A stretch of 64,000 bases of DNA from Antedon bifida (taxonomy: Eukaryota > Echinodermata > Crinoidea > Comatulida > Antedonidae), in assembly GCA_963402885.1 (NCBI GenBank), contig OY727101.1, forward strand, positions 21,614,417 to 21,678,416, read 5' to 3'. The position numbers and the translations under genes are program-made. Shown here piece by piece: positions 27,439 through 57,290 of the stretch (positions are counted from its first letter, which is position 1; each line of letters starts with the position of its first letter). The notes under the pieces were generated by a model. It did no database searches and was not told the DNA's origin. It saw only the letters and a list, made by a program, of their open reading frames with translations.

Positions 27439-28267
27439 TTAGTGTATTGAGCCTGCACCATGTAACAATTCTCGTTCAAATTGCTCGGCGGTAAACGTTC
27501 CATCTATCCGTTCAAAATCACGATTAAACACTGAATACGCACTTAGTTCTCCATAGCGTCTTGGTATTCCAACTGTCATCGTGATATACATCAGATAAAA
27601 TATACTCAACATGAAGAAGATGACACCAAACTCAATGTGGATAAATAAAGCAAATAGTAGTAACCAGAGAAGAACCTTTAAGAATGTGGTATTAGAAATT
27701 ATATTATTGTTGATTATAGCTCTCACAAGTCTTGTATTCTCAACATACACATAAAGATTGTCTATCCACCGATTTCGCTGAAATAGAAAAAAAAATGTAG
27801 TTTTAAAAAGATATTGTTTAATTGTGTTTGCTTTTTTTGGCAAAAGAAAAGTCAGGAAACTAAAATTCAAGTTTCATTTCTATATGAATTTCACTTGATT
27901 TTAACACCATTTCTTCAGCGCACATTCAACGGTGGATACACAATAAATAAAAATTAAGAACCGTAGTACTACACATAATGATTTCATTCAGTGTATATAG
28001 GCCCCCATACTACAGTAAATAAAACATCCCTCTCAATAAAGGCGCCCTAACCCCTGTACTCAATGACTCAATGTTCCACCGCATGATAGGTGTATGCTCA
28101 CACATGTTTGTGTAACTTACCAATATCATTGGTCCTGTGGGTGTAATTGGTGCAGGTGTTGCAACTGGAGTATTTGCAGTGTCTTCTGTAATACCATGAT
28201 GCTTTTCTGGGTTTTCTCGACGTTTTCTAGCTCTATATTCAGCCAACTGTTCTTCAATTCCTGACAT
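27439..28267 (-). CDS. SAYSD1: SAYSD1, SAYSvFN domain-containing protein 1
   Basis: Two exons: 28267-28121 (49 codons, donor GTAAGT) and 27777-27439 (acceptor TTTCAG), 161 residues. The N terminus MSGIEEQLAEYRARKRR is basic and helical. A Pro/Thr-rich linker follows, then a membrane region (FLKVLLWLLLFALFIHIEFG and VIFFMLSIFYLMYI), then the family signature SAYSVFN and a GTFTAEQFEREL tail. Length and order match the vertebrate protein (~183 residues) with a shorter linker. SAYSD1 is known as an ER-membrane factor that recognises UFMylated, stalled ribosomes at the translocon and promotes clearance of the trapped nascent chain. The gene is intact. Confidence 0.95.
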
Positions 28268-31042: not shown

Positions 31043-34000
31043 TCAAAATAAATAAACTCCTCTATATGAATACTTTTTAGTCATATGATTCATTACATCC
31101 CCTGATATATTGCAATTACGCATGTAAAGTATCGACATATTGGGAGACTTAACTAGCAAGGAACCCAGTAAATTTCCATCGACATTGCTGAGATTATTGT
31201 CACTAATAACTAGTGATTCTAACGCTAATCGAACTCCTCTTATTGAACACAGCTCTCTGATCATGTTATTAACTACGTTGCCTGACAGACTGCAATTATG
31301 CATGTAAAGTCTTTCCAACTTATGTGACATCATCAATAAACAACCCAGTAAAGTGCCATTAACGGTGCTGAAATTATTATCATTGATATCTAGCCGTTCC
31401 AATTGTAATTGAACTCTGCTATTTGAACACTTTATGATCATGTGATTTAGCGTATCACCCGATAGATTACAATTACGCATTTTTAGACACACCAGCTTAG
31501 GGGACATAATCAATAAGGACCCCAGTAAAGTGCCATCAATGTTTCCAAGGTTATTATTGTTGATATTGAGGAAAAGCAATTCTAATTGAACTCCTTTATT
31601 TGAACACTCTCTGATCATGTTATTCATCCCGTCTCCTGATAAATTGCAATTACGCATGTCAACTCTCCAAAGCATAATAAAAAAATAACCCAGTAAAGTA
31701 CCATCAATGTTGCTAAGATTATTACCATGTATATCTAGCCAATCTAATGTTAATTTAAATCCTCTATTTGAACACTCTATAATCATGTGATTCAATACAG
31801 CACCTGATAAATTGCAATTACCCATATCAAGTATTCTAAGCTTAGGAGACATACTCAATAAAGAACCCAGTAAATGACCATCAATGTTAATCAGGTTATT
31901 ATCATCAATATCAAGACTATTTAAAGCTAATTGAACTCCTCTATCTAAGCACTCTCTCATCATGTCATTCATTACATCACTTGATAGATTGCAATTACGC
32001 ATATCAAGCCTGTTCAGCTTAGGAGACATACTCATTAAAGAACCCAATAATGTACCATCAATGTTGCTTAAATTGTTATCACATATATATAGAAAATCTA
32101 ATACTAATTGAACTCCTATATCCGAGCACTCTCTAATCATGTCATTCATTACATCACTTGATAAATTCTGAATAGAAACCTCCTTACATCTTACAATGCC
32201 TAAGATATGTGCAATAACTCTTCCCTTAGAATCAGATGCCATCTTCTTACAAAAGGTGGATAAACTATCTTTATTGCAATAAAGTTGCCTTATTAGATGT
32301 ATAAAATTTCCATCATAGTGTACACCTGGGCTAATGTGATGAATAAACATTCTTACGGAGGCGGATATATCATCCATATGTGTACTGAGTTTAGTGTGTT
32401 TGATGTTTTTATTTAATGTATTTAACACAGATTCCTCATGTTCCTTTTTGACATATTTTAAATTACTTGGCAGAGAGCGATATGTTGATAAATTATTTGT
32501 TACCCAATGACTTAGAAATCGATCTGATTTATCACCAAGAAAACCAACTGCAAACTCTCTTGCCACGGTTAAATGCTCACATTCTCTTATTACCTCCCAT
32601 TCCTTACCGTCGAATGGTGTAAGTAACAGTCGTGTGTCTTCTGTGTAACTATTCTCCATACCTTCAATTTCACATAACTTGCACAAGTAAAATCCTACCA
32701 ATGATTCTACTATCAACTTGTGAGGAGGCATGAAAATATTTTCAAATTTAGATTTTGAAATTGGAGTATCTTCATATACAAATCCAAGTTTTAGAGCCAT
32801 GTCAACCATATCCTTGTTACCTTCCAAATTATTTTTGTTTATTGAAAGTTGATTTACTTTTAAGCTATTATACATGCACTTTCCTAGCAAAAGCATAGCA
32901 TTAACATACTCCAATGGAGCATCTACTAATTTAGAGATCTTTTTGTATGTTTCCTTTTGTTTGTTAAATTGATTTAATATACTGCAAAATATTTCTTTGA
33001 AAAGGTCGGCTTTATTATGAGGAAGACTTTCATTCTCTTCCCATAGAATACAGATTAACAGAAGTAACATTGGATTTCTACAAATTAAATTTACTTCTTG
33101 ATGTTTACCTGTACGATTCCAATTAGGCTTGTCAATCTCCAATTCCTCTCTAAGACGTTTTCCCAATTCTAGTTTTTCAAAATAACTAAAATGTTTGTCA
33201 ATATAATTTCCTATGCTCTGGTCATTAAATCCCTTAACTCTTATATGTACATTACACCTTTTTACGAATTCATCTATGTTCTCTGATCGCGATGTAATTA
33301 CCACAGTACTTTTCTGTAGTGTTTGTGTTTCCTTTGTGAAAAGATGAATTAAACATTTATTACTAAATTTTAATTCATCTAATCCATCTAATAACAGCAC
33401 TATTTTATCATCATGAGCCATTAGAAAATCTTGAATCAACATAGGATCACTTGGAAGTTTTGTGCACCTTTTGAAATCATTCATATCCAGTTGTTTATTA
33501 ATAAGGTCTATGATGTCTTCACCTTTTTCTAACTCTCTTATATTTAACAAAAATATTATTTTACCTTTAAAGACGGATGAGTCAGTAGCCAAGTTTGATG
33601 CTAAACGCCTCAAAATAGTACTTTTACCAATACCACCCTGTCCGTCTATAAGAGCTCTACATTTAGGTGTGGACTTGATAATGTCTGCTACATCTTCTAA
33701 TGTTGTTAGTTTGCTGCTTTTCATGTTATTACTTTCTTTGAGTAGTTCAATATTGGTAAACATCTGAGACATGTCAACAATATATTTATCATTCATTATT
33801 GCTGGTGTAAACAAATTGGCCTTTTTGCACAATATCACTTGTCTTTTAAACAAATACTTTTCTATTTTTTCTAAAATGAAAAAAAAATAAAATATATAAT
33901 AATCACTTGCACTGATGAAGGGCTAGTGTTGCCCGAAAGCTCTGCAAATTGTCCTGGCTGTTTTACATGTACTGTACATGTACAGTTACATGCTGCTTTA

Positions 34001-39780: not shown

Positions 39781-40924
39781 AAAAACTGCGTCATGATCCA
39801 TCATTTGCATAAAGGGATCGAAAGCTGTAAAATTCACATGTGATTTTCTTTTGGGGAGAGAGAGCAGAAGAAGAGAGAAGGAATCATATTTTAGTCCTCT
39901 GTGTATAGGCTAGTATTAGCTTGTTTTTTCAGAATATGATCTCGCGCGAGGGTGTAATTGCTGTACACGTAGGTACACACATACTTGTATTGTAGGTAGG
40001 CCTATTTATTGCTAGCTAGGCTATAATAATTAAAACTAACAATATGGTCCGGTCGCCCTCTTCTTAGTCTTATTGATGAATTAATTGCCAGAATGTATAT
40101 GTTTCATTTTCCCAAAAAATGTAGAAACTAATATTGATGGCAGTTTTATAACATCCGGCTGGCGTAATCTAATAGAATAATAGAGATTAAATTAATATTT
40201 CATTATTAATTTATTATTATATTTCCAGAACTCATTGCTGAGTGATTAAAAAGCCATAAATATAAATGGCTCTTTGTCAGTTTGTCTTGTGATTATGTCT
40301 AAAAGCGCCCTCTATAGTTTTAAAATAAATAAAAAATAATGCTGATGTCATTATTTTTAGTAATTTATTACATAGTGTTATTTTCCCTACATACATTGAG
40401 GGTGCAATTTAACAACAGACCAGAAAGTAATGCTTATGTATTAAATTACGAAAAATGATGACGTCATCGGTCATTTTATGCATATGTAAAATCCAGGGAA
40501 CGTAAAATCAAGGTACGTAAAACCAAGGTTCTACAGTCTACCTTCTCATTTACGTATCCTAGACATTGGTCTGATGAGAGGCGTTCGTAATTTATTATTG
40601 CATATTTTGATACAAACTTTAAATTACGAACCTGTTCTTGAAGTTTAAATATTAAGTCGGGTCTGGACCGCATATATTTTACCTTTTGAAAGCTACTACA
40701 ATCAGTAGCAGCAAGGGAAAATGGAATTCCCAGACAATAGTTTACAAATATTGACTGAGAGTCGAATGTTTTTTTTTATTGAAAAAACATTCACAAACTA
40801 AGCTAAATTTATAGTATGGTCATCGTAGCTAGCCGTTGCAGTTCGCGATGTGCTATTTCAATAATGTGCTGGGTGCTTTCCATGCACTCCAGCAGGCAGG
40901 GATGATGATGTCCTGGTACGCCTT

Positions 40925-40964
40925 AGGCCTAGCCCATGGAGTAAAGAATAAGAGGAGGCACAAC
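40925..40964 (+). repeat. 40-bp arm of a widely spaced inverted repeat (partner 43147-43186)
   Basis: AGGCCTAGCCCATGGAGTAA plus AGAATAAGAGGAGGCACAAC matches the reverse complement of 43147-43186 with 3 mismatches. Adjacent inner sequence shows weaker similarity (TTACGTAAC, CTTAAGCATA-like). The 2.2 kb between is AT-rich without a gene. It may be the ends of a decayed DNA element. Confidence 0.6.
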
Positions 40965-43146
40965 ACGGCCTAGCTATCCAGTTAATCCAATTAGTATCAC
41001 GCTGTGCGGTAGTGCTTAAGCATAGGGTAATAAACTTCCCATAACGATCCTTTGAAGAACATCCTGTTTACCCGTGCAGCTCGCTGCAGAGTCGGCTCTG
41101 ATTACGTAACACCCTAATTAAGGAAGAAGCCAGGCATGACATCGGTGACAAGAAAAGTAAACAGAGGCTGCGCAGTAGTTTCTAATACATCATAGTGAAG
41201 CATGACCGTTGTGCAGTTGTTCATTGTTCTTTGAGCTTTTTTCTCGAAAAAACCGTTTAAAAATCGAGTAAATTTTCACGGAGATATCGCAGTTTTTATA
41301 CCAGCTAACAAATTAATCATATTTTTTATCAAGCCATAGACGTATCATTTGGTAAATCGAAATTTTACCGTTTAAGCAACTTTTTAATTTACGAACCCTA
41401 GTGCATTTTGTAGCATATTAAAGACTCCAACTTATTTTAAAATCATATTTTAGAAAAAAATTATATAATTTGTTCTCATGAATATTCAAAAATATACGTA
41501 TATTAGAATTCCAACGACACAATTTCTTATTTTTATTACTGTATATGACATTTAATTTATGTTTCAGTCTATATTATGACCGTTTAGCAAAACTAAAATT
41601 CTTCTACTTTAGTCTGATATTGTATAACTAAATTATTTATGATATTAATATCATAAAATATATGATTTTTACGATCACATACTTAGAGTTCAGTGAAATT
41701 GTAGAACTAAATTATATATCGTTTAACGATTTGTGGCTACACATAGGCCTATACTACATAAATTAGTAGGCCTCAGTTCGTAATATATTATTATTTAATA
41801 AATAGCCTAAATAAGGATAATATTTAATCCCATAATGATGGACATATTTATTGCATACCGTAACCGGTAGGCCTAATAGGTTCAGGCATAGGCGCGCCTA
41901 TAGTAATAATAAACAATATCAATAATAATAGCAATAGGTTTTTTTTATGTAGGTCTATATTAATATATTAATAATTGTAATAACGTTAGAAATAGTAGTA
42001 ATATTTTATTAAAGAAGAAATTAATCAATTAGTTTTCGGATAGTCGTTATTATAAAATATGGTATAAAATGGTACTACGAGAATATTCGTTTAGTATCAA
42101 CCCGTAACAACAACTACAAATTATATGTGTTGGTTAAAAATTATTACAAATATAGTCTATGCTTATTTGTAATTATAAGCCATTGTTTAAAAGGATTATG
42201 TGCAGTTCGGTACATAGGCCTAGCGGTTAATCGTAAAATTAAAAAATCGGACATACGAACAATAGATCGCCAACATTATTCGTACCCGTTTGCTGTATTG
42301 CGTACGTCGATACACAGTACACGACTGAGGCGGCTGTAAACTTCGCCTGGAAAGTAACTAGTACAGTACACATTCTGGTCCCTGGATGGAACATGATATC
42401 ACACGTAAACCGCAATGGAGCAGGCCCAATGATAAACAATTCGTACAAAGGGGAACCGCGTACCTATTCATTGTTTATTAGATCGCTGGCAATATGCATG
42501 CATATAAAGTGCAATAGCCCTCCGCTCCGACGTACTAAAAAAATGGAACGTCGCGGTTTTTCTAGGCGCTGAAGTTATACGAAGTGAACGCGAATGATTT
42601 TTACTGTATATCATATTCCCCGACGAAAAGTACTCGCGTTTCCCAGACAGGGGAGTGGGGGAGATAGGCTCTCCGACGAGGGGATACAGCCCCCGTAGCC
42701 CCCCCCCCCCCCCCATTAATCCATCATGATTCATGATAAGTTGTCTGGAGAAATTACCAACATTTAGTACACAGTAAACCATATACATATAATTCCTTTA
42801 TTGGTGCCGTATAAAACTCGTATTATTAATTTATTAATAAAAGATATCCAGTAGAATAGCGCTGCTTTTTATAAAAATTAATAAACAAGGTCGGAATACA
42901 AGTTCAGTAGGTCTACAAACAGTATACTGTAGTACACCTTTTACGCTTGAACGCACATCGCCTAGGAAGAGTATTGTGACGTCCTAATACGCATGTGTAC
43001 TTACACCAAAATTGACCGCGGGCAGTAAACATTGTAATCTTTGCTAATTGGGTTACGTAACGGCAGTGTTTAGCACCTATTAAATACTCATTACAAGCAT
43101 AGCCTTAAGGAAGCGGTAAATACGGTGAACTGATTGAACTATTCAA

Positions 43147-43186
43147 GTTGTGTCTCCTCTTATTCTTTACTCCATGGGCCTAGCCT
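43147..43186 (-). repeat. Partner arm of the inverted repeat at 40925
   Basis: GTTGTGTCTCCTCTTATTCT then TTACTCCATGGGCCTAGCCT. It lies about 290 bp before the first recognised TASP1 exon. Confidence 0.6.
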
Positions 43187-43474
43187 AATTGGCCTGTCTG
43201 GCAAGTTTTAGACTTGAAATATACAGAATACGTTTGTAATAATTTGATTTAATTGTTTTGGGATAGTTTAATAAATTAAGAAGATAATTAATAGTAGGTA
43301 TGTAAAACTTTTATCAACAAATTACGTTATTTTTTTTCTCAAAAAACGCTTTTTACCCTGATCGATTACAGATTCCAGCTTTGTAATCTATGGAAAATTC
43401 TGGTCCGGACTAAAAAAAAAAAAAACTGTACACACACTAAACTAAAATCGAGCATTTGTATTATTCATATTTAG

Positions 43475-46400
43475 GTGCTGGGTATCATGCTCCCTCTAAA
43501 GAAGCCGGTTACAATCAAGTATGCAAGCTGGCATGTGCAAGAGTAAGTTATCATAAACCTTTACTTAATTAACTTACCAAAAATGGTTGTGTAAATTTAA
43601 CTACTAAGGCTGTGTTTGGACTTTAAACTCAATTGCACATGTAATCTAAATTACTCTTTGGACTAACCAAACGAACTGTTCAGTAAACAACAAATTTGCA
43701 CATGCAAACTAATATTTACCCAGCAAGGTCATATTTCATGCCTCTTTTTACAATAGTAAGGTCAAATTGCTCATTATCTTGCTGTTAATCAGCATGCGGT
43801 TTAAGAACAATCTACCTCATGAGTTGGGTTTTTGAAACAGCTGGTTTATCTCCAAATTTACACGTCACCACATGCGACTATTAAACGTGTAAACTGTAAA
43901 GCCCAAACAGGCCGATTTTGAATGGCAAAAAAAATGATTTAAGCCAAATTTTAGGGAATGATACAAAAAAACCTGTTTTTATTAAAACTATATTATGTGA
44001 GATGTACATGGCAAAACTATATTATATTGTTTGTATACATAAATGAAGACATTAAATTGCACGGCTGTTTCTGTACAGAACATTAAAGTGGAGCTCCACC
44101 CATTTTTCCAGATCCTTCTATTTCTGGTATTTTTTATTAAGTATACATTGCGCAATTTTGCATCAATAGACACTTCACCAATATACTAGAGAGTATGATC
44201 ATGTGACATTTTTCAAGATCACACACTGCTGGCATGGCTGGCAATCTGTTCTCTATGCGATGTTGTTTTTAACGGGTGAAAAGTATATTAAAACATTCTG
44301 GATGTGACGATATCATGTTTCACAGTGAAATGATGTGATTATGAGATTATTACTAAAATATCAAATTTAACAAGATCAGAGAAAGGCGTGGCTATATATT
44401 CAATAAAGCTAGGCCTAGGCCTACAAGGTATGTACCAATGCTGCTTGGCCTAACTAGGCCGTGATAGCCTTACAGCAGTGAAGTTTGTTCTGGCACAAAG
44501 CCCCGCCCGAACTACCAATAATGATAGGCTACTTGAATTGCTCTTCAGTCAGGCCTAAGTTTCCATATATACATCCATACTATTCTGTTATGTGGGCAAT
44601 ACAGTTTGTTTTTAGAGGATTTTGTGTTTCAAAATTCGTAATGTGCGAGAAAAGCCAAGAGTGATAAATGGGGCGAAACGACCAAGCCTTTTCAAACCCA
44701 TGAATACATAGGCCTAGACATGAATTCAAGCCTAGCTAGCTTAGGCTGAGTAGGCAGCCTAGCTAGTCCTAGTTAATTAAGATTATGCTGTTGTACAGTG
44801 CAAATCATGATGTTTTATGTAAAACATACTGACATTTTTATCTGAAATATTACTTGGGCCTAAACAAATTGAATTAATTGTGTATAAAATTGATTCGCCA
44901 TTTTTTGACACTATAATTTACCCAAAGGGAGAAATTATACCAACGCGTTCACCACGGTGACTATAACTCGTCCGTCACCAAGTGTAACACGTTTCGCGAT
45001 ATACTGTATTGTAAACTAATATTTATAACCCCTAAGTTACTGAAAAGTGCAGTATATTAATAAAATGTTATTGCCATTCCATATTTTTTTTACTTTTTTT
45101 TTACTTAAACATAATATAAGCTGAGAGTCTAAGTGGAGCTCCACTTTAAATTATTGTCCTACTGTATTAATAAGAAATTTATAGTGATTATTAGAAATAA
45201 ATGTTTATTTTGCATATTTTATTATTTATATTATTAATTATTATTTATTATTATTATATTATATTTATAGGGCATTGAAATGTTAAAGAGCCATTCTTCA
45301 TCTTTAGCTACATTAGTTGCTGTTATGAAAGTATTAGAGGTAAAATCAATTTTATCAAACAAATCAAAATTGATATTTGTAATATCTTTCTACAGTACTA
45401 GATGGAAGCACTCATTTGTGTCTCTTGTTTTTTGAATGCACATCTAATTTGTAGAGAAGTATTTTGGAATTTCGCAAACGATCATAATAAGGGGCCGTGT
45501 CAAAATTATATTACTCCGTGTAACGTAGTAAACACAAAGTTTACTGCGGTTAACACACTAACGCTCCTTTATTCATAATCTTGTGGATTTAAGTAATTAC
45601 GTCAGCAAATTGATTATTAATAAATAAGCAAATGAATATTCATGATAGTACAGCAGAAACAGGAGACACGCTCCATTGATTTTGGAGTTAACACGTTTCA
45701 ATATCCTGCCTATTTTGATTGCATATACTGATACTATTTAATATACCATTGTTTAAACGTTCACCAAGACCATGACCAGACAGTGGGCAAACCCTGTTCA
45801 ACGTCTAAATATAGCATGATGTCATTGGTGGTATACACGCATGACGTTGTTGACTAGGCTAGCAGTATAGACAAAACAAGGTGCTATTAGCTGAAAATAT
45901 AATTCGGAAAAAATTTACGGTATAGCTGGTCGGTGACCTGCTGCACGATCGACAGTGTTCTCACCTATCGACTCGTCCTGTCTTTCACAAACAGGCTCCC
46001 TACCAGCACCATTGTTTATGTAAGAGGAGGCTTCACCTTGTTAAGTTGGCCTCAATACTTTACTAATGTTTGTTTCTATAAATTTCTTTACAAAATAGGA
46101 TGATCCGTTTACAAATTCTGGAACTGGATCGAACCTGACTTTTCATGGCACTGTGGAATGTGATGCTAGTGTAATGGATGGTAAAGCCAAGTTGTCAGCT
46201 TCTGTGGGAGCCTTACAAGGTAAAAAAACAAAAACTGTCCAAGATTCAGCTACTTTTTCAACTAAATAGTTTTTTTAGGTCATACGCTTTGTAACTCAAT
46301 ATATTGGAATGTCCTTAAAAAAGTAATCGCACAATAACAGATAATTCAAGATAAAAACTAAGCCTGAATTAAACAGTGTATTGTGCTAAACAATTTACAG

Positions 46401-49400
46401 TTATAACTAGATGACGCATTATGTATTCTTGTAAAATAAAGTTAGCATTTTGGGTGATAATAAAAAAAATGGGATTTGAACTCAAAGTTTAAAGTGATTA
46501 AAATAAAAGAAATCCTCTGAAGCCATTCATGCCTTTTGTTGAGTTAGAATGAAATATCCCTAAACAACTATGAACAATTGTAGTCGGGTCTCCAAAACAT
46601 TTATTTTTATTTATTCCAGGTGTTAAAAATCCTATAGAAGCTGCACATTGTTTGCTAAAGGAACAGATGAAGGGAAAAATGCCACTAGGTAGAGTTCCAC
46701 CATGGTAACAATTTATACTGTTTTGTCCCGCTACTGTGTTGCATTGACTGAAAATGCAAACTCAATAACGAAAGGGACAAGGAGACAATGTCCGGGGTGG
46801 ATCCGGCCCGGTCATTCCCAAATTTTGCAAACTGTAATGCAAAAATTGGACATCAAATTAAGCTCAGCCATTCATTTCAACATTTGTATGCCCTGTCCCC
46901 CCTTCCCTTTTTCAAAATCCGGGATCTGCCACTGAATGTGCCTGTTAAATTGTCCAAACTTTTATTAGTTAGGCATGTCAAATGATAAACAATAATAATG
47001 CAATACAAAAGAGCTAAACAAATTATAAATATATTAATATTTAATACAATAAAATATATATATTTTTTCATTGATAACATTTGTTTTGTGTAATAAATTT
47101 ATATTGTCTAAATTTTATTAATTTAGTTTTCTCGTGGGCAATGGTGCCAAACAGTTTGCAAAGGATCATGGGATTGAAGAAGCATTACCAGGCACAATGA
47201 CCACAGAACGTTCCTTGAAAAGTTACAAGAAGTACAAAAGACGATTCTCTGAAGGTGTAGCAAAACATGAAGGTGTAGCAAAACATGAAGGTGTAGCAAA
47301 ACATGAAGGTGTAGCACAACATGAAGGTGTAGCAAAACATGAAGGTGTAGCAAAACATGAAGGTGTAGCAAAACATGAAGGTGTAGCAAAACATGAAGGT
47401 GTAACAAAACATGAAGGTGTAGCAAAACATGAAGGTGTAGCAAAACATGAAGGTGTAGCACAACATGAAGGTGTAGCAAAACATGAAGGTGTAGCAAAAC
47501 ATGAAGGTGTAACAAAACATGAAGGTTTCCAGAAATGCCAAGAGGTAGGTAGGGTTCATTATCTTTAAGCCTTATATACACTATCAAATTATTTTGACAA
47601 AAAAGTGTGATGTGCCCAAATATGGCAGTGATATGACATCATCATGTCCATATATGGGTACATCACATTTTTTTGTCACATAAAGTTTGATAGTGTAGAC
47701 AAGGCTTTAGTTGTATGTAAGCTGTGATCACATTTAATGATTTATGTTAAAAACATTCTTATTTTGTATTAAAGATGTATTGTCGCAGCTGAAAAAATAA
47801 TTTTTACAATTTTTTTGTTGAATATGCCATTTTAATGTCGCGTAATAGTTATTCACTTTGACCAAAAACTGGATCGAAAAAAAACAATTATTTACATGAA
47901 AAAAACTGTAATTTCAAGCAAAATAGTAAAATTGGCTGCCAGCCAATGGGTTTTTGATTGAATTTAACTGTTTATTTGTCATTTGTCAAATAAAAACATT
48001 ATTTTTTTCATTTTTTTGTTACCATAGTGATTAAATTTGTTAAATCTACAAAATGGCCTATTCAAATTTTGATTTTATTAATCTTAATTTTTCATGTTTT
48101 TGGAGACAATACATCTTTAACTTATGAAATTGTTGTGTATTTATTTAATCACACTCTTGTTTAAATTCTGACTTATGAGTAAACAAATATATAAAATAAC
48201 ATAATGAAATGTAAAATGTTAGAGTCTAATGTATGTGCGGGATGGAGTTACGATTTTGTAACAGTCAAGTATTTGAAAGTTCAACGTACTGGAATGCAAA
48301 ACATACTTGCCAGAAACTGTTTTTACTTCACTCCCTAAGCCTAAAATAAAACTTTATCCATTGTGTAATTTGTGCTGAAATAAATAAAAAGCATGGAGGG
48401 AAATGATAACTGTTAGTAATGATTGATTCACCAAAAAAAAAAACACCACAAAATAACAAGCAAGCCTTCATGTCACTGATAATAATTAATGCGATTTGCA
48501 AGAAATTTGCAGGAATTTATTTGGTTTCTGAAGACAATTATTGGAAATAACCGTTAAAATGTGACTGAATGACAATTATTTCACTGCATTGCAAACTGCA
48601 TGATACAAGGCCATTGCTGACTTTATACCACAGTACTGTACGTTAACTTGTTAAAATAAAATATCATACAGTTTAAATCAAGAAGTAAAAAGAAGAACTA
48701 GAACATACTTTAAATTGTTTATGATAAAGAGACAACAACATGAACAATGCAGGGGAAAGACAAAAACATTAAATGACGAGGAACAATGCAGGGGAAAGTC
48801 AAAAGCATTGAATGACAAGGAACAATGTAGGGAAAAGATAAAAACATTGAATAGAACAATGGAGGGAAAAGATAAAAACATTGAATGACAAGGAACAATG
48901 CATTGAAAAGACAAAAACATTAAATGACAAGGAACAATGCATAGGAAAGACAAAAACATTGAATGACAAGGAACAATTGAGAGAAAAGATAAAAACATTG
49001 AATTGATATGATTAGTTATTTTGTCCATAACATTATTTACCATGGAGCTTGGCAGCCAACGATTGTTGAATTGTTATTGCTGTATTCTCATTGGTCAGAT
49101 GTTTTGCACTATGTTGCCATCTGAATACATTTCCAGAACTTCCAAAAAGAAACATTCATTAACAATTTATGGAAATTAAAGGAAAGCGGAATTGACTTGA
49201 CTTTGAAAATTAAATACCAACGGAAGCTGGAATAAATAAAAAGGAAAGTAACTAAATTGTTTGGATTGGGAAATAAAATGTAAGGATACATATTTTCGTA
49301 AGGAATTGTGGAATTTGAAAAATGGAGTACAAATAGATTGAACTGCATCAGTATGGATTGAAACATCACATGCATTGCCACCATACCAAATGTTTATTTC

Positions 49401-52400
49401 AACTGTTGATGGAGTACAAATAGATTGAACTGCACGACTATGGATTGAAACGTCACATGCATTGCAACCATACCAAATGCTTATTTCAACTGTTGATGGA
49501 GTACAAATAGATTGAACTGCACCAGTATGGATTGAAACGTCCCATGCATTGCAACCATACCAAATGCTTATTTCAACTGTTGATGGAGTACAAATATATT
49601 GAACTGCACCACTATGAATTGAAATGTCACATGCATTGCAACCAAACCAAATGCTTATTTCAACTGTTGATGGAGTACAAATAGATTGAACTGCACCACT
49701 ATGGATTGAAACGTCACATGCATTGCAACCATACCAAATGCTTATTTCAACTGTTGATGGAGTACAAATAGATTGAACTGCACCAGTATGGATTGAAACA
49801 TCATGCATTGCAACCATACCAAATGCTTATTTCAACTGTTGATGGAGTACAAATAGATTGAACTGCACCACTATGGATTAAAACGTCACATGCATTGCAA
49901 CCATACCAAATGCTTATTGCAACTGTTGATGGAGTACAAATAGATTGAACTGCACCACTATGGATTGAAACATCACATGCATTGCAACCATACCAAATGT
50001 TTATTGCAACTGTTGATGGAGTACAAATAATTTGAACTGCACCACTATGGATTGAAACGTCACATGCATTGCAACCATACCAAATGCTTATTTCAACTGT
50101 TGATGGAGTACAAATAGATTGAACTGCACCACTATGGATTGAAACATCACATGCATTGCAACCATACCAAATGTTTATTGCAACTGTTGATGGAGTACAA
50201 ATTGAACTGCACCAGTATGGATTGAAACGTCACATGCATTGCAACCAAACCAAATGTTTATTGCAACTGTTGATAGAGTACAAATAGATTGAACTGCACC
50301 AGTATGGATTGAAACGTCACATGCATTGCAACCATACCAAATGTTTATTGCAACTGTTGATGAGTACAAATTGAACTGCACCACTATGGATTGAAACATG
50401 TAATATTACTACACTGTAGTTTGTGAATCAAAATTGACATCTAAGTTAAAAACATTGACAATGGTGAAAAAATGAACCTGACAATGAGTTTTCATTTCTT
50501 ATGAAACAAGCATTTTAACTGAATTTTTTTAGATAATTACCTTTGTATAAAAACATGTTATGAAATGTGTTTAGAAAAACAACATTATGTTAAAGATGTA
50601 CAGTATTGTCCCCAAAATATGGCAAATGTTGAGTAATAAACTTTGAATTTAAAAAAAAGTTTTTCAGGTAATATTATTTTTTCCCTGATCCAATTTTTTA
50701 ATACTGTATTTCAAATGGCCTATTCAATAAAAACATTTTTCAGGGGGCAATACAATTTAAATTAAATTTTAATAAGAATATGTCTAGTTTAATGGTTTAG
50801 TTAAAACATAGATGTTTATGTTTTAAAATAAAACATAAAAATCTATGTTTACAAATTGTCTTCAAGTTGGCGGTAAATATTGCCAATTTCATGTCTGTAT
50901 TTTTATTTATTTTTTTATTTCATCACCCTACAGTGACAAAACGTCACCATTAACAGGGTTGACAGTCATAAAATATAATATAATAGTATTATTATTATAA
51001 TGTAGTAGTAAACTGTAGTGATTTTTTTCATCATTATACTATACATAATTTAAATCTTCATAGAACAATTATCTATATTAAATATTTCATTTTTTTTTTG
51101 CATTTTTATAAAATCAACAGATCCAAATTTCTAAAATGGAGGAGTGATTTTCGGCTAAATTGCATAAGCTTTTTTGGACAGCGACGATCTTGTTTCAAGA
51201 TGTTATATTTTTAATACACATTTTCATCTTCATATGTACATTTAAGCAGGAACACCAGCTGAGAGCACAGTTTCGTTGACGCGCTGCTCATTTTGAAGTT
51301 TGTGCATCATCCATGTATAAGCTTGCGAGTGCATAAACCTTCAATGTCCTTTTGTGCACTAAACATTTATTGTTACTGTACTACTTCATCTATCTAGAAC
51401 TGTTGCTGTCCCACAGTTTGCATTTAATTTTTTTTTGTCTCTCTGCTGGATTGTTGACCTAAAAGACATCCCTCCGTTTCCATCCATTTCCTTCTTTTAT
51501 TGGAAAAAAACCTGTAAGAATGTGATGTGTAATACTTTTATTTTCTTATGCTCAATATATTTTTAGCATGGCATTACCTTTAAAAAAGTGAATGTGATTA
51601 TTACTGCACCTCTGTTAGTGTTATTGTTGCCGGCATTGTTAATGTCTCGCAAACTGTGTATGTGGGTGGATGGTAAAATTCCGTCAGTTTCGCTTGAGGT
51701 TTTTTTGTAATGCTGTGTTTTAAAATTCGAATGCATTTTCCTTTAACCATTTTTTGGTGAAGATTCTTTGAAACTTTGGTTTCATAACCCTCAAAGTCAA
51801 TGCGCGTTAGAAAACAATCTAGGTCCACGTTGTGCTGTCAAATGATGAATATGTCGTCGACATATCAAAGCCAGAGTTTTGGTCGCTTGTTGGAGTAAAG
51901 TGCTAGTTGTTAGAGCTCCTCCAGGAAGATGTTAGCAATGAGTGGATCTATTTAGCAATAAAGTAGATCCCATAGCCGTTCCTTCTGTAATTCTTTTCAC
52001 GGACACTGTGTGTGTTGCAGGATGATAAAATTCAGTCAGTTTTGATTCAGGAATGTCAATTGTTGACGTTTGGAAAATCTTTGAATCTTCCGTATAATTT
52101 GCTTCAGGTTTTTTGGTAATAGTATGTTTGATATACGGATGTGTTTTCCTTTAATCATTTCTTAAGATTTTCAGAAACTGTTGTTTCGTAAATTTGAAAG
52201 TTCTGTTCCATTGTATAGCAAAGTAATTTTGTCTGTGTAGTTCATGTGGATTACAAGACAGTTTACAAATAGCTGTAGGAACCAACTTTCCATCCCATAG
52301 AACATCAACATCAGAAATATCCCCCACCATGAAGAATAGGGCCTAGTATTTCTGTCCTCCACACTTCCCTATCTTGGAAATGTACCCAAGTTTGTTCCTT

Positions 52401-55400
52401 TCCTTTTCTACAGTTCTCCAGTTTTCTTTAGGTCTCCCCACTCTTGCTTTCAAGTGGCCATGTCAATGCTATTCTTGGTGTATTATATATTTCGGTTCAT
52501 TCTCAATACATGTCCGATCCATTTCCATCTTCCATCGATTGCTAAAACTCTCATCTTCATGGTAATAAACGGTGAAGTTTCAAACATTGATGAGCTGAAA
52601 TTTTAAAACAATATCAGAGAAAAAAAATCTACAGAATGGTACTGTATCTAAACATATCCGACATTTCAGTAACCACTGATTGGTCTAAATTAATCAAATT
52701 AGTATGAAAACACGATTGTGAACTTAGTTTGATTATTTTGCTTTTTTAAACAAAAGGAAATATTGACATTACAAAACATGACATGCATCCTCAATTTTAA
52801 CCAAGAATGTAGCATTTGAATGAATTGGTATTAAGACTAAAAGTCTCTGCCACTTGCAAGGAACTCTGGGCAATCTCCTCTTGCATCGAAGTGTAAATTG
52901 AATTCTTCTTCCGTTGATGAAGATGAGGTGATTGAGATTGTTTTTAGTCAATAAAAATAGAAATTATGTCATAATTTTTTGTCAAAAGTAAACAAAAATG
53001 TACGTAGTATTCTTTAGGCAAGATGTCTTTGAAAACTGCACATCCATAATATAAAAATGAAGCACAGAATTCAACAGCTGTAAAATTAAATAAATACAGA
53101 AGTGAATGTATTTAATTACATTCTAAGATTTCATATATTGTTATTACAGTTTGTTTCCTGCCTAAGTCTCTTAATCTTGGGCCATCCTTCCTGCTTCCTG
53201 TAGCGATGGTATTCAAACCATTTGTTATTTCGTCTTGATCTGTTCTCAAGGTCTTATTAGCTAAGATATTGCGACAAATGCAACTTGGTGTTCTCATCAA
53301 TAGCGCATTGTTAACAGTCATGTTGGTTGGATTCGATGTAGTCACAGCACGATTCAATAGTGTTGAGCTGGTCGCCTATTCTATCAAGCTTTGAGGACAG
53401 TAATATGATCAAGAGTGGAAAATTTAGCATCCATTTCCTCACAGATTCCTGTTTGGTTTGTCCAGATGTTTCTCTAGTCTTTGGACGGCTCATGTTAAAA
53501 GCTGTCTGCTCTTGCTCAGTATATAATGTAAAATATGTATAAAATTATACATACACTTTCCTAACAAAGTCATAGCAGTATTCATACTCCATTGGAGCAT
53601 CTATTAATTTAGAGATCTTTTTATATGTTGTTGTTTATTAAACTGATTCAACATACTACAAAATATTTCATGGAAAATGTCTTATTATTAGGAAGACTTT
53701 GATTTTCTTCCCACAGCATACAGATTGACAGAAGTAGTAACATTGGATTTTTACATATTGTACCTACTTCTGGATGTTACTGGTGCAATTCATATAAATA
53801 TTGTCAATCGCCAATCAATTGTTGGTGCTGTGAACTTTTGTCTAATGACAATTCCTTCTTCCATTTTATGAATTCATATATGTTTTTTGATTGTGAAATA
53901 AGTACCACAGTACTTTTTTCTAGTGTTTCTTTCATGAAAAGATGAATTAATCCTGCATTACTAAATCTTAATTCCTCTTATCCATCTAATCCATCTAACA
54001 AAAATACTATTTTGTTTTGAGCCATCTCGTGAGTCAGCATTGGATTATTTGGAAGTTTTGTGGACTTCATATCCAGTTGTTTTAAAATCTAAGATGTCTT
54101 CATCTTTTTCTAATTCTCTTACATTTATAAAAAATACAATTTTACGGATAAGTCCGTATCCCAGGTGACTGGATAAAAGTGTGTCAATCGTAAATAACAA
54201 TGGTGCCTCATCATCCAGGCCTCAGTTCTCCAATTGCTGAGGCCCACCTCTTCCATCGGGTTTAATGCCCACCACTGCACTTGGGCCTTCTATCTGTTAC
54301 TGCAGGCGAGTGGTTTGAAGCACCCTGGAACATGTATCTTACCCAGGGTCACCGTTATTTATACTGAATTTATTGCTTGATTCTGGCGTGGCAAAGCTTA
54401 AGCTTGTGTCTTCTCTCTTTACAGTCGCCTGGGAGTGACCATTCATTTGGTGCATTCAGTCCTTGTTTGCATCAATTGACAAATATCTTTTTTGATTAAC
54501 TAAATCATCATCATCAGAGTAAAGATCAATAATATCATCTAATCCATCTAACAAAAATACTATTTTGTCGTCTTGATCCATTGAGTCAGCATTGGATCAT
54601 TTGTGGACTTGTCTTCATATCCAATTAGATCTAAGATGTTATCATCTTGTCTTCATATCCAATTAGATCTAAGATGTTATCATCTTTTTCTAGCTGTTAC
54701 ATTTTTTTTTAAATGCATTCAGTCCTTGTTTGCATCAATTGTCAACTTGACAAATATTTTTCTTGATTAACTAAATCATCGTCACAGTAAAGACCAATAA
54801 TACTGTTGTCGTATTTATTCTTTGACAAATTTGAAGCTGTGATTTTACAGGTTTCTCCTCCCTCCGTTTCCCATTGTGACAGTGGTGGATTTTTTTTAGT
54901 CTTTTTTACACCATTTCTTGTGAAAGAGGACTTTATTCATCAGAGATTGTTACAAATTCGGAGGCAAATTTAAACCTGTACAAACGAAACTGTGTTCCCA
55001 GCTGGTTCTCCTCTTAAAATGTACTACAGCAACAAATTAAAAAAATACAACAGAAACAAGCCTTTAAAGGTCTAATTGCTGTCTGTTTATACTTCATATC
55101 CTTTGTTTTACAATTAGATCGAAGATGTCTTCATCTTTTTCTTACATTTAAAAAAAAATATATCATCACATTATATTTAATTATTTTAGTATATTATGTA
55201 TAATGTTATGCTGTTTTTTATATTTTAATTATTCAGTATATTGTGTATCATACTGTGCTGTTTTTTATATTTTTGGTTAAATGATTTTTTTTATCATTGT
55301 AAAATTCTTCTTGTGGACATAATTTCAATAAAGCTATGTTTTATGTTTAATGTTGTTGTTTAATGTTGTTTACTGTGGTTGTTGTCCACAGGGGTCCAGT

Positions 55401-56505
55401 TTTCTTATGGATACAGTCGGTGCAATATGTCTGGATACAAGTGGAAACATCAGTTCTGCGGTTTCTAGTGGAGGAATTTTGTTAAAACATCCTGGGCGAA
55501 TTGGACATGTAAAGACTTTTTATTTTACTTAAACCAAATATTTAGCACGAAATACAGATAAATATTACATTAATTTAGTCATTTAAAATTAGTTTTCAGA
55601 TAATGTCTGTTCTGTTCTAGCATTTTACTATTTTATTAAGGTTTAACAATTGTTTTATATTACTTTAGGCAGCCATGTTTGGTTGTGGTTGCTGGTCACA
55701 TAATTGTGAAGAAGATAACTTTGGAGTATCCTGCTCGGCAACCGGTAGTGGAGAACAGATTATACGAACAAACTTGGCTTCAAAGTGTTGCCAGAATGTA
55801 CTTAATAAAGACAACCCTTTTCAAGCTATTCAAGAAACCTTCACTAATGACTTTGTTAGTAAGTGCAGCTATTAAATTATTGTTTTATAGAAAGATTGTT
55901 AGTATTGTGGTACAGGTACAAGTCTTGTGCTTTCACATTGTTTTCTGCAATATTTTCTTTTGCTATCACAGATTTATTGTGTGCATTGCCTACTGTAGGC
56001 CTTTATAGTGGTAACCTATAATTTGTCAGATTGATGAATTAATTTTTTGTTTGTATTTACAGATAGCCCACTGCTTTGTAATGATAGTGAGAAGCTAGGT
56101 GGTGCTATTGTGTTGAGTTACAATCAAAATAATGCTGAACTTGTTTGGGCTCACACAACAGATAGCATGTGTCTGGGTTACATGTCTACTAGAGATAAAT
56201 ATCCAAAGGTATACAAAACAATTCAATCATTTGTTTACCCCTCTCAAATTCACTAATCACATACAACAAAGGGTCTCTTCGTGTCTTATAGAAGCTGCCA
56301 CCAGCTCAGCACAGGGCTGAGCTGGACCAGTACACCTTGCCTTGTTGATATAAATATATATTTTCTATCAGAAAATACAGAAAATCACATTGAAATGAAT
56401 GATGTAAACATGTTTTGCTTTGTTTAGGTCAAGATGTCAAGACTATCGAAAGAAAGCAAAACGGGTGAATCTCTTTGTCTTGGAGGCTGTGCATTTAAAT
56501 TATGA
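43475..56505 (+). CDS. TASP1: Taspase 1 (threonine aspartase), first coding exon(s) not found
   Basis: Exons 43475-43542, 45271-45339, 46099-46219, 46620-46704, 47127-47544, 55392-55508, 55669-55858, 56063-56208, 56428-56505 give 429 residues in frame to the stop. The protein is an Ntn-type endopeptidase that autocleaves into alpha and beta subunits and then cuts MLL-family proteins and TFIIA in the nucleus. Seen: [64 protein letters not shown], then the autocleavage context [12 protein letters not shown] with the nucleophile Thr kept, [25 protein letters not shown], and [12 protein letters not shown]. The alpha-chain loop before the cut (human ~50 residues) here carries 15 hexapeptide repeats. 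The missing start should encode a stretch like GFVLVHAG, ending in a codon split after its first G. No frame break is visible, so the gene is probably functional. Confidence 0.93.
47254..47523 (+). repeat. TASP1: 18-bp coding minisatellite, 15 copies of GVAKHE in Taspase 1
   Basis: The unit GGTGTAGCAAAACATGAA is repeated exactly 15 times (270 bp), always in frame. Variants by unit order: Q for K in units 4 and 12, T for A in units 9 and 15, otherwise GVAKHE. It sits between KYKRRFSE and GFQKCQE, about 12 residues before the Asp-Thr autocleavage pair. All variants keep charge and polarity, with no stop or frame change. The opposite strand is also open only because 18 is divisible by 3. Confidence 0.97.
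47566..47712. mobile_element. MITE family 1, intact copy (about 145 bp)
   Basis: Left end AGCCTTATATACACTATCAA and right end TTTGATAGTGTAGACAAGGC are inverted. The inner GTGATGTGCCCAAATATGG and CCATATATGGGTACATCAC are also inverted, so the element is nearly palindromic. TTA flanks both sides (TTA-AGCC...GGCT-TTA), which suits a Harbinger-type 3-bp target site, though a TA-type element cannot be excluded. It begins 22 bp after the donor of the repeat-bearing TASP1 exon. Confidence 0.85.
47769..48120. mobile_element. MITE family 2, 352 bp with perfect 16-bp terminal repeats
   Basis: TTAAAGATGTATTGTC (47769-47784) is the exact inverse of GACAATACATCTTTAA (48105-48120). If TTAA is the target duplication, the terminal repeat is AGATGTATTGTC, as in piggyBac-type elements. 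Related ends occur at ~24841-24856, ~18420-18500 and ~50592-50760, always in introns here. No coding capacity. Confidence 0.85.
48731..48995 (-). repeat. TASP1: 39-bp tandem array, about 6-7 copies, TASP1 intron
   Basis: The unit is AACAATGCAGGGGAAAGACA then AAAACATTGAATGACAAGG, with variation and some shortened units. Because 39 is divisible by 3 the minus strand stays open, but the repetitive Phe/Ser/His/Cys peptide is not a believable protein. Confidence 0.85.
49315..50398. repeat. TASP1: About 87-bp tandem array, about 12 copies, TASP1 intron
   Basis: The unit contains ATTGAACTGCACCACTATGG, ATTGAAACGTCACATGCATT, GCAACCATACCAAATGC and TTATTTCAACTGTTGATGGA. Spacing between AACTGTTGATGG motifs is 87 bp, with small indels near the 3' end (about 50190 and 50360). 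Open minus-strand frames here are by-products of the period. Confidence 0.92.
50400..51600. other. TASP1 intron, no gene
   Basis: AT-rich. 50592-50760 resembles a decayed MITE family 2 copy (TTAAAGATGTACAGTATTGT at the left, GGGGGCAATACAATTTAA at the right). Nothing else recognised. Confidence 0.5.
51600..52200 (-). mobile_element. Reverse-transcriptase fossil, probably Penelope-like, fragmentary
   Basis: The minus strand shows an RT signature of the Penelope type: a [10 protein letters not shown]-like segment, then KRPKLW, a YVDDIF catalytic box, and a DLDCFL-type segment downstream. Related stretches near 51640 and 52030 suggest two overlapping or rearranged fragments. It is old, broken in several places, and only a few hundred bases of the element remain. 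Confidence 0.55.
52330..52560 (-). mobile_element. LINE ORF2 C-terminal remnant
   Basis: The minus strand encodes [14 protein letters not shown], followed in other frames by [12 protein letters not shown] and [16 protein letters not shown]. This is the familiar 'RWxGHVLRM...GKRxRGRPKxTWRRTVE' end of many non-LTR retrotransposon ORF2 proteins. Frame changes show it is a decayed fragment. The adjacent 52620-53540 holds no clear gene; short minus-strand frames at 53112-53493 may be ORF1-like debris, but I cannot support that. Confidence 0.7.
53543..54165 (-). pseudogene. Broken copy of the NACHT region of the TIR-NACHT-LRR gene
   Basis: The sequence from TTATACATACACTTTCCTAA to about ACGGATAAGTCCGTATCC aligns in order with 32867-33592 of the intact gene. 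Shared runs include GGAGCATCTA, AATTTAGAGATCTTTTT, CTTCCCA, CATACAGATT and CAGTACTTTT. It is about 100 bp shorter than the parent stretch, has several indels and no long open frame. It lies in the TASP1 intron on the strand opposite to TASP1, in the same orientation as the parent. Confidence 0.85.
54449..54830 (-). pseudogene. Second NACHT-gene fragment inside a local tandem duplication
   Basis: 54536-54580 repeats the Walker B region of the NLR gene (CTAATCCATCTAACAAAAAT then ACTATTTTGTCGTC). A 38-bp unit (CTTGTCTTCATATCCAATTA ...) is doubled at 54608-54683. The flank TGCATTCAGTCCTTGTTTGC with TTGATTAACTAAATCATC appears at 54449 and again at about 54714, so a unit of about 264 bp has duplicated. 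54170-54448 carries unassigned sequence. Confidence 0.7.
55085..55150 (-). pseudogene. Third, short NACHT-gene fragment
   Basis: TTCATATCCTTTGTTTTACA ... GATGTCTTCATCTTTTTCT resembles 33481-33535 of the intact gene, between Walker A and Walker B. Only about 60 bp. Confidence 0.5.
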
Positions 56506-57290
56506 CATCTGGTCACTTCGGTTAAGGTAACATGCTGATCACAAATACTGGTTGACTAGGAGGCTGTGCTTTTCAACTATGACACCATCAAATCTGGTCA
56601 CTTCGGTTAAGGTAACATGCTGATCACAATACTGGTTGACTAGGAGGCTGTGCTTTTCAACTATGACAACATGAAATCTGGTCACTTTAGTTAAGGTAAC
56701 ATGCTGATCACAAATACTGGTTGACTGGGAGGCTGTGCTTTTCAACTATGACGTCAAATCTGGTCACTTCGGTTAAGGTAACATGCTGATCACAATACTT
56801 GTTGACTAAGAGGCTGTGCTTTTCAACTATGACAACATGAAATCTGGTCACTTCAGTTAAGGTAACATGCTGATCACAAATACTGGTTGACTAAGGAGGC
56901 TGTGCTTTTCAACTATAACAACATGAAATCTGGTCACTTCAGTTAAGGTAACATGCTGATCACAAATACTGGTTGACTAAGGAGGCTGTGCTTTTCAACT
57001 ATGACGTCAAATCTGGTCACTTTAGTTATGGTAACATGCTGATCACAAATACTGGTTGACTAAGAGGCTGTGCTTTTCAACTATGACAACATGAAGTCTG
57101 GTCACTTCGGTTAAGGTAACATGCTGATCACAAATACTGGTTGACTGCAGGCTGTGCTTTTCAACTATGACAACGTCAAATCTGGTCACTTCAGTTATGG
57201 TAACATGCTGATTACAATACTGGTTGACTAAGGAGGCTGTGCTTTTCAACTATGACAACATGAGGTCTGGTCACTTCAGGTTCATACTGA
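56481..57290 (+). repeat. TASP1: About 80-87 bp minisatellite, 10 copies, seeded by the TASP1 stop-codon exon
   Basis: The first unit is the end of the TASP1 last exon, where GGAGGCTGTGCATTTAAATT ATGA encodes G-G-C-A-F-K-L-stop. Nine further units follow, each with GGCTGTGCTTTTCAACTATG A (G-C-A-F-Q-L-stop), then TCTGGTCACTTCGGTTAAGG and TAACATGCTGATCACAAATA. Later copies share Gln and CTT/CAA changes not found in the coding unit, so they spread from an early derived copy. Confidence 0.93.

What the first reader, a model, noticed from the sequence alone, without database searches (positions are those of the whole stretch)
47127..47544. Taspase 1 with 15 in-frame hexapeptide repeats next to its autocleavage site
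The exon encodes 15 GVAKHE units (270 bp, 18-bp period, no frame loss), about 12 residues before the Asp-Thr pair that Taspase 1 cuts in itself. In the human enzyme this segment is about 50 residues and is needed for activity. Here it is replaced or enlarged by a low-complexity, likely helical run. Only K/Q and A/T variants occur, and the catalytic Thr and all flanking exons are intact, so the array seems tolerated in a working protease. A length-variable minisatellite in this loop could tune autocleavage.
Basis: partly seen in the sequence, partly recalled or inferred. Interest (0 to 1): 0.78.

Follow-up and report, generated by a model that had tools for sequence, protein, structure and literature searches.

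The report
Repeat-filled activation loop in Taspase 1
An apparently intact animal gene for the self-cutting protease Taspase 1 carries 15 copies of a six-amino-acid repeat in the loop just before its self-cutting site; most likely this is a recently grown, tolerated spacer, though it sits where the human enzyme has a conserved regulatory segment.

Summary
Exon 47127-47544 carries 15 in-frame 18-bp units (47254-47523, GVAKHE), 13 residues before the Asp-Thr cleavage pair. I built a ten-exon, 442-aa model (39936-56505) without stop or frameshift. Its best solved relative is human TASP1 (E 1.4e-92; 51% and 46% identity on the two sides of the array), far ahead of other type-2 asparaginases (2.5e-27). 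The human loop G178-D233 (56 residues) corresponds to 132 residues here. The first helix and first basic cluster remain. The second helix and its KKRR cluster (part of the import signal, recalled) have no recognisable counterpart; the array lies there.

Repeat variants carry no sign of selection. The array is open in four of six frames, so openness proves little. 'Helical' and 'tunes autocleavage' are untested. The window is rich in minisatellites; another overlaps this gene's stop codon. In bacterial relatives the matching linker varies in length, and one (L045) has its own tandem repeat there.

Most likely: a coding minisatellite tolerated in a linker that becomes the free alpha-subunit tail after self-cleavage. 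Transcription, splicing, polymorphism and activity could not be tested.

The parts
39936..39972 (+). TASP1 exon 1 (MISREGVIAVHVG), least certain exon; donor TAG|GTACAC is weak
   Evidence: aligned to human residues 40 onward
43475..43542 (+). TASP1 exon 2
45271..45339 (+). TASP1 exon 3
46099..46219 (+). TASP1 exon 4
46620..46704 (+). TASP1 exon 5
47127..47544 (+). TASP1 exon 6, the array exon (end of the conserved alpha subunit, first loop helix, array, GFQKCQE)
47194..47247 (+). counterpart of human loop helix 1 (residues 150-167)
   Evidence: alignment (query 4-167 to human 40-203, no gap); helix limits from PMC4790943; letters
47227..47244 (+). basic cluster KKYKRR (residues 161-166), counterpart of the first basic cluster of the human loop
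   Evidence: sequence; human loop letters checked; its role in the import signal is recalled
47254..47523 (+). coding minisatellite: 15 x 18 bp, (GVAKHE)15, residues 170-259
55392..55508 (+). TASP1 exon 7, end of the loop and start of the beta subunit
55410..55415 (+). Asp273-Thr274, predicted autocleavage pair and catalytic Thr (human D233-T234)
55669..55858 (+). TASP1 exon 8
56063..56208 (+). TASP1 exon 9
56428..56505 (+). TASP1 exon 10 with stop codon

Best explanation
It is an intact-looking TASP1 (threonine aspartase 1) gene of an unidentified animal in which a coding minisatellite has recently grown inside the linker that ends the alpha subunit. The unit length is a multiple of three, so copies can be gained or lost by slippage or unequal exchange without frame loss. 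In the folded proenzyme the linker loops out near the active site; after cleavage at Asp273-Thr274 it becomes the free C-terminal tail of the alpha subunit. Extra repeats therefore sit in an exposed segment and are tolerated, as long as the first loop helix, the basic cluster and the residues at the scissile bond stay. Shown: the array, the frame, the splice-consistent gene model, the homology and the position. Inferred: translation, exposure, tolerance, recent growth. Not shown: protease activity.
For: Array and frame. Ten-exon model of 442 codons without stop or frameshift, its nine introns GT-AG with matching phases. Human TASP1 E 1.4e-92; 83 of 164 and 79 of 173 aligned residues identical on the two sides of the array; DTVGA and AVSSGG kept. 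The array exon's own donor scores highest of the nine donors of the gene, 6.34, next 2.28, on a generic matrix written from memory. Unit divergence is low, 4 changes in 270 bases. Linker length varies in the family: anchor-to-Thr distance 30-98 in 77 measured of 83 bacterial loci, of which L005 (82) is wrongly anchored and only the 12 longest and 4 shortest were looked at one by one; window 141 with the array and 51 without, human 65 (offsets). L045 has a 9-bp, 5.8-copy tandem repeat in the same loop. NMR signals of the loop's end appear as human Taspase1 activates (PMC4790943).
Against: PMC4790943 reports the TASP1 loop as highly conserved in 32 species, so tolerance in TASP1 itself is not known. 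Helix 2 and the second basic cluster have no counterpart here, so the enzyme may be impaired or differently controlled. The array holds a possible splice donor at each of 15 unit starts; 13 of 15 score 0.84, above five of the nine modelled donors. The window's linker is longer than any of the bacterial ones that were not wrongly anchored. In the bacterial set a strong array in the loop was seen in 1 of 79 loci; arrays of any strength are only about twice as dense as elsewhere in the ORFs (8 in 10,053 against 33 in 79,218 bases).
Confidence: 0.66

Rival explanations
1. The array is functional: its length or its 15 histidines tune the closing of the loop over the active site, hence the rate of self-cleavage, and the array is kept by selection.
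For: It lies in the activation loop, whose positive charge is proposed to promote opening (PMC4790943). The array takes the loop's net charge from +2 to 0 and adds 15 His.
Against: No sign of selection in the units: two kinds of variant, both non-synonymous. No relative with the same array could be examined. The surrounding DNA is rich in minisatellites.
Confidence: 0.08
2. The array is mostly or partly removed from the mRNA (exon skipping or use of a cryptic donor in the units), or a missing exon in the 7.8-kb intron supplies the human-like helix 2.
For: Each unit start holds AAG|GTGTA(G/A), scoring 0.84 (13 of 15) or -0.41 (2 of 15) against -0.8 to 6.34 for the modelled donors. Intron 47545-55391 is 7.8 kb and holds two large arrays.
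Against: The cryptic donors are in phase 1 and exon 7 starts in phase 0, so direct joining breaks the frame; the exon's own donor is the strongest. A strict scan of the intron for phase 0-0 exons gave 0, but its filter would reject several of this gene's own donors, so it excludes little.
Confidence: 0.12
3. The TASP1 protein is impaired: without helix 2 and the second basic cluster it is not imported and matured as in human, and the gene is drifting.
For: Human maturation needs nuclear localisation and the loop holds the bipartite signal (PMC4790943); the KKRR stretch has no counterpart.
Against: The ten modelled exons are open, and 51% and 46% of aligned residues match human on the two sides of the array. 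KKYKRR remains and fits a one-part import signal (motif rule recalled).
Confidence: 0.07
4. The copy number, or the array itself, is an assembly or allele artefact of a repeat.
For: Tandem arrays are error-prone in assemblies (general knowledge); no reads or second assembly are at hand.
Against: Four variant units are interspersed and the flanks are clean exon sequence.
Confidence: 0.07

Closest known systems
Human Taspase 1 (TASP1; PDB 2a8i, 9e6u, 6vin), MEROPS T2 Ntn hydrolase
   Same: Catalytic core, Asp-Thr cleavage pair, loop helix 1 with basic cluster.
   Different: Loop G178-D233 is 132 instead of 56 residues; helix 2 with KKRR has no counterpart; (GVAKHE)15 stands there. The N terminus begins about 36 residues later in this model.
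Type-2 asparaginase / isoaspartyl peptidase of bacteria, for example that of Dyadobacter fermentans (L045)
   Same: Same family (Pfam Asparaginase_2 for the window) and same pre-nucleophile linker; L045 also carries a tandem repeat there in an open frame.
   Different: Best segment 31% identical to the window's protein; the repeat is 9 bp and Gly-rich.
Protein-coding minisatellites / VNTRs in general (recalled)
   Same: Near-identical units, period a multiple of three, inside an exon.
   Different: Here in the activation linker of a self-cleaving protease; polymorphism not tested.

Membership tests
Taspase 1 (TASP1) | Asparaginase_2 / Ntn hydrolase core | tested here: met
   PF01112 E 2.4e-52, 178.4 bits against a cut-off of 27
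Taspase 1 (TASP1) | Closer to TASP1 than to ASRGL1, AGA or bacterial isoaspartyl peptidases | tested here: met
   The six threonine aspartase 1 sequences have E 1.4e-92 to 1.4e-83, the next 2.5e-27 (54 sequences listed)
Taspase 1 (TASP1) | Asp-Thr autocleavage pair with Thr nucleophile in DTVGA | tested here: met
   D273-T274 aligned to human D233-T234
Taspase 1 (TASP1) | Long alpha-subunit C-terminal loop with helix-turn-helix and bipartite nuclear import signal | tested here: inconclusive
   Helix 1 and first basic cluster kept; helix 2 and KKRR not found; described for human in PMC4790943, alignment, human letters
Taspase 1 (TASP1) | Cleaves MLL and TFIIA type substrates after Asp | not testable with these tools
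   needs an enzyme assay
Protein-coding minisatellite (VNTR) | Head-to-tail units with a period that is a multiple of three, inside an open exon | tested here: met
   15 x 18 bp, no indels
Protein-coding minisatellite (VNTR) | Copy number varies between individuals | not testable with these tools
   one assembly only; no genome held
Beta-solenoid hexapeptide repeat (considered because of the AF2 model) | Confident and reproducible solenoid model with a structural relative | tested here: not met
   best of 5 models at mean pLDDT 69.6, the others 45.4-48.8; best Foldseek E 0.068, none at or below 0.001; AF2 made confident beta-solenoids for 32 of 78 random repeat sequences (PMC11795689)

The most novel reading that the evidence does not exclude
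The array has taken over the place of loop helix 2 and of the second half of the import signal, so that in this lineage maturation of Taspase 1 is controlled by a length-variable, histidine-rich spacer instead of by the conserved helix-turn-helix; copy number would then be a heritable dial on the activation of a master developmental protease.
Probability: 0.07. Interest if true: 0.75.

Novelty: new variant of a known kind. Interest (0 to 1): 0.36.

Why it matters
The Taspase 1 loop is described as highly conserved and crucial for activation, and it is discussed as a drug target (PMC4790943). A natural orthologue that lacks its second helix and carries 90 residues of repeat instead would be a ready-made test of which part of the loop is needed for self-cleavage and nuclear import. 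If it is merely tolerated, it is an ordinary example of a coding repeat in a permissive linker.

Tried and rejected
Helical array: not supported. AF2 on the contiguous exon gave one beta-rich model of modest confidence and four poor ones, with no significant solved relative; treated as a likely AF2 artefact (PMC11795689, abstract and one results section). Chou-Fasman means favour helix (1.106 against 0.893 for strand), the Pace-Scholtz mean is 0.498 (rest of the enzyme 0.571), and charge-hydropathy puts the array just on the disordered side (0.402 against a border of 0.421) (scales from memory).

Pfam on the array exon alone gave only weak matches under their cut-offs (SinI 1.2e-4, Plasmodium_HRP 0.0082, two above 0.1), taken as low-complexity noise.

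Selection on the units: no signal. Block duplication inside the array, suggested by the order KKKQKKKKTKKQKKT: rejected; no repeated block with two variants, and the order and spacing arise in 1550 of 8190 placements.

Openness of the frame as proof of coding: rejected; the array is open in 1 of 3 plus frames and 3 of 3 minus frames. The minus-strand ORFs over it were judged by reading only and not searched against any library.

Relatives: no whole genome is held. A viral-contig scan with a 105-aa piece of the window's protein gave 20 pattern matches, none confirmed. A viral-contig scan with a doubled unit found nothing. The collections on hand are of prokaryotes, phages, viruses and plasmids, so the age of the expansion stays open. 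The bacterial survey uses the best 80 of at least 587 confirmed relatives plus 3 plasmid loci, so it is not a random sample. First measurement: 77 of 83 measured, 6 missed, L005 wrongly anchored. Stricter anchor: 71 of 83 measured, 12 missed, L032 wrongly anchored at 197. For the tandem-repeat count I left out L005 and L032 by hand; of the other 81, 79 could be used; rows were merged in 60-base bins and the ORFs run from stop to stop, so the densities are rough.

Literature: 'Taspase' with 'tandem repeat' gave 7 papers, 5 listed, none about a repeat in Taspase by title and start of abstract; GVAKHE gave 0. The library holds only open-licence papers. Passages only were seen of PMC3343046, PMC9140057 and PMC9913075. 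[quoted passage not shown] it may show that the import signal differs between animals.

First models had wrong borders or a failed start search; the model used is that. The exon-finding scan was too strict to exclude a missing exon.

Full report
What is there. The exon 47127-47544 reads [42 protein letters not shown], then 15 hexapeptides, then GFQKCQE. The array covers 47254-47523: 11 units GGTGTAGCAAAACATGAA and 4 with one change each (units 4 and 12 K to Q, units 9 and 15 A to T), no indel. The unit was found nowhere else in the window (15 matches with up to 3 mismatches, each in the array; mean 0.05 in shuffles). What follows the array, GFQKCQ, matches the unit at 9 of 18 bases, which is too little to call a sixteenth unit.

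The gene. Guided by the human protein I placed ten exons between 39936 and 56505; the nine introns are GT-AG and the phases agree; the product is 442 aa with no stop or frameshift. Exon 1 (ending VHVG) rests on the match EGVIAVHVGAGYH to human and is the least certain. Pfam gives Asparaginase_2 (E 2.4e-52). Among solved structures the best are the threonine aspartase 1 sequences (six, E 1.4e-92 to 1.4e-83), followed at 2.5e-27 by other isoaspartyl peptidases. On the printed alignment 83 of 164 residues before the array and 79 of 173 after it are identical (counted). D273-T274 aligns with human D233-T234.

The loop. Human G178-D233 is 56 residues; the proposed model has helices at I186-L203 and D210-S222 that bring the two parts of the nuclear import signal together (PMC4790943: abstract, results, discussion and passages seen). 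The human letters of this stretch were checked against a PDB chain; that the signal's two basic parts are KRNKRK and KKRR is recalled. Here the matching stretch is residues 142-273, 132 residues, or 42 without the array. The alignment to human runs without gaps to residue 167, so helix 1 and a basic cluster (KKYKRR) are kept; between there and the cleavage Asp lie 105 residues here and 29 in human (from the coordinates). I see nothing like TDFMQLKKRR in those 105. So the array both enlarges the loop and stands where the second helix and second basic cluster lie in human. Without the array the linker would be shorter than the human one. The same paper states that the loop is highly conserved in 32 species and that maturation needs nuclear localisation; its species figure is in a supplement that I could not read. 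That the segment is required for activity was, as I recall, reported with a permuted enzyme in 2021; the DOI that I recalled is not held.

Is the array special to this exon? The window has eight arrays of five or more copies with periods of 18 or more: at 7168, 13001, 23519, 31055 (the leucine-rich repeats of an NLR-like gene), 47250, 48742, 49322 and 56502. Four of them lie within the TASP1 gene or at its end. The 85-bp array at its 3' end includes, as its first copy, the last codons and the stop of TASP1 itself (56467-56506, 30 of 40 bases as the reference copy). Minisatellite growth is therefore a general habit of this DNA, and one with a period divisible by three can survive inside an exon.

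Selection. Of the 54 possible single changes in a unit, 12 are synonymous, 40 non-synonymous and 2 make a stop. Two kinds of variant, both non-synonymous, carry no information on constraint. The frame is open by nature of the unit.

Splicing. On a generic donor matrix written from memory, the array exon's donor is the best of the nine (6.34), but each of the 15 unit starts carries a possible donor, 13 of them scoring 0.84, above five of the nine modelled donors. These are in phase 1 and would break the frame with exon 7. Inclusion is the likelier outcome but RNA is needed.

Structure. The only structure job, on the contiguous exon, gave one beta-rich model of modest confidence (mean pLDDT 69.6) and four poor ones, without a significant solved relative (best E 0.068). 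AF2 is known to build confident but false beta-solenoids for repeats: 32 of 78 random repeat sequences (PMC11795689, abstract and section 3.2.1). I draw no fold from it. Simple scales are equivocal between weak helix and disorder.

Comparison in the family. In bacterial isoaspartyl peptidases the distance from a fixed anchor to the nucleophile Thr ranged from 30 to 98 with a median of 55 (77 of 83 loci measured; L005 wrongly anchored at 82; only the 12 longest and 4 shortest were printed and looked at). A stricter anchor gave 32 to 98, leaving out L032, wrongly anchored at 197, and a median of 56 with it (71 of 83). By the first anchor the window has 141, or 51 without the array, and human 65 (from the residue offsets). 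The longest, L045, has its own 9-bp repeat of 5.8 copies in this very loop. Tandem arrays of any strength are about twice as dense in the loop as in the rest of the ORFs (8 in 10,053 bases against 33 in 79,218; 79 of 83 loci); the only scores above 60 are those in the loop of L045. This is a modest sign that the linker is a permissive place, resting mainly on one locus.

Conclusion. A coding minisatellite tolerated in the pre-nucleophile linker of an otherwise ordinary TASP1 explains what was seen. What makes it worth keeping is the absence of the conserved second helix and basic cluster. The tuning idea is attractive and testable but has no evidence yet. The species is not known to me; no collection used here is of animal genomes.

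Noticed in passing
56467-57279 (+): 85-bp minisatellite (9.2 copies by TRF from 56502; 10 listed from 56467) whose first copy contains the last TASP1 codons (GGCAFKL) and the stop codon; a second array overlapping the same gene's coding end.
   Followed up: partly
48742-49003 and 49322-50397: Two more minisatellites (39 and 87 bp) inside the 7.8-kb intron between the array exon and the cleavage-site exon.
   Followed up: no
31043-33922 (-): NLR-like open frame of 959 aa: NACHT domain (E 3.8e-16) and leucine-rich repeats; the LRR part shows as a 177-bp tandem repeat.
   Followed up: partly
53970-54040 and 54510-54590 (-): Two short minus-strand stretches that read [12 protein letters not shown] and [12 protein letters not shown], like the stretch DKIVLLLDGLDE in the NACHT domain of the NLR-like frame; perhaps remnants of NLR genes inside the TASP1 intron.
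   Followed up: partly
L045:1993-2045: Isoaspartyl peptidase of Dyadobacter fermentans with a 9-bp tandem repeat in the loop homologous to the array site.
   Followed up: partly
18083-18391 (+), 21985-22287 (+), 27439-27873 (-), 6691-7026 (+): Open frames with parts of other genes: COG2 N- and C-terminal domains, a SAYSvFN-domain protein, and the end of a secretin-family 7TM receptor.
   Followed up: no
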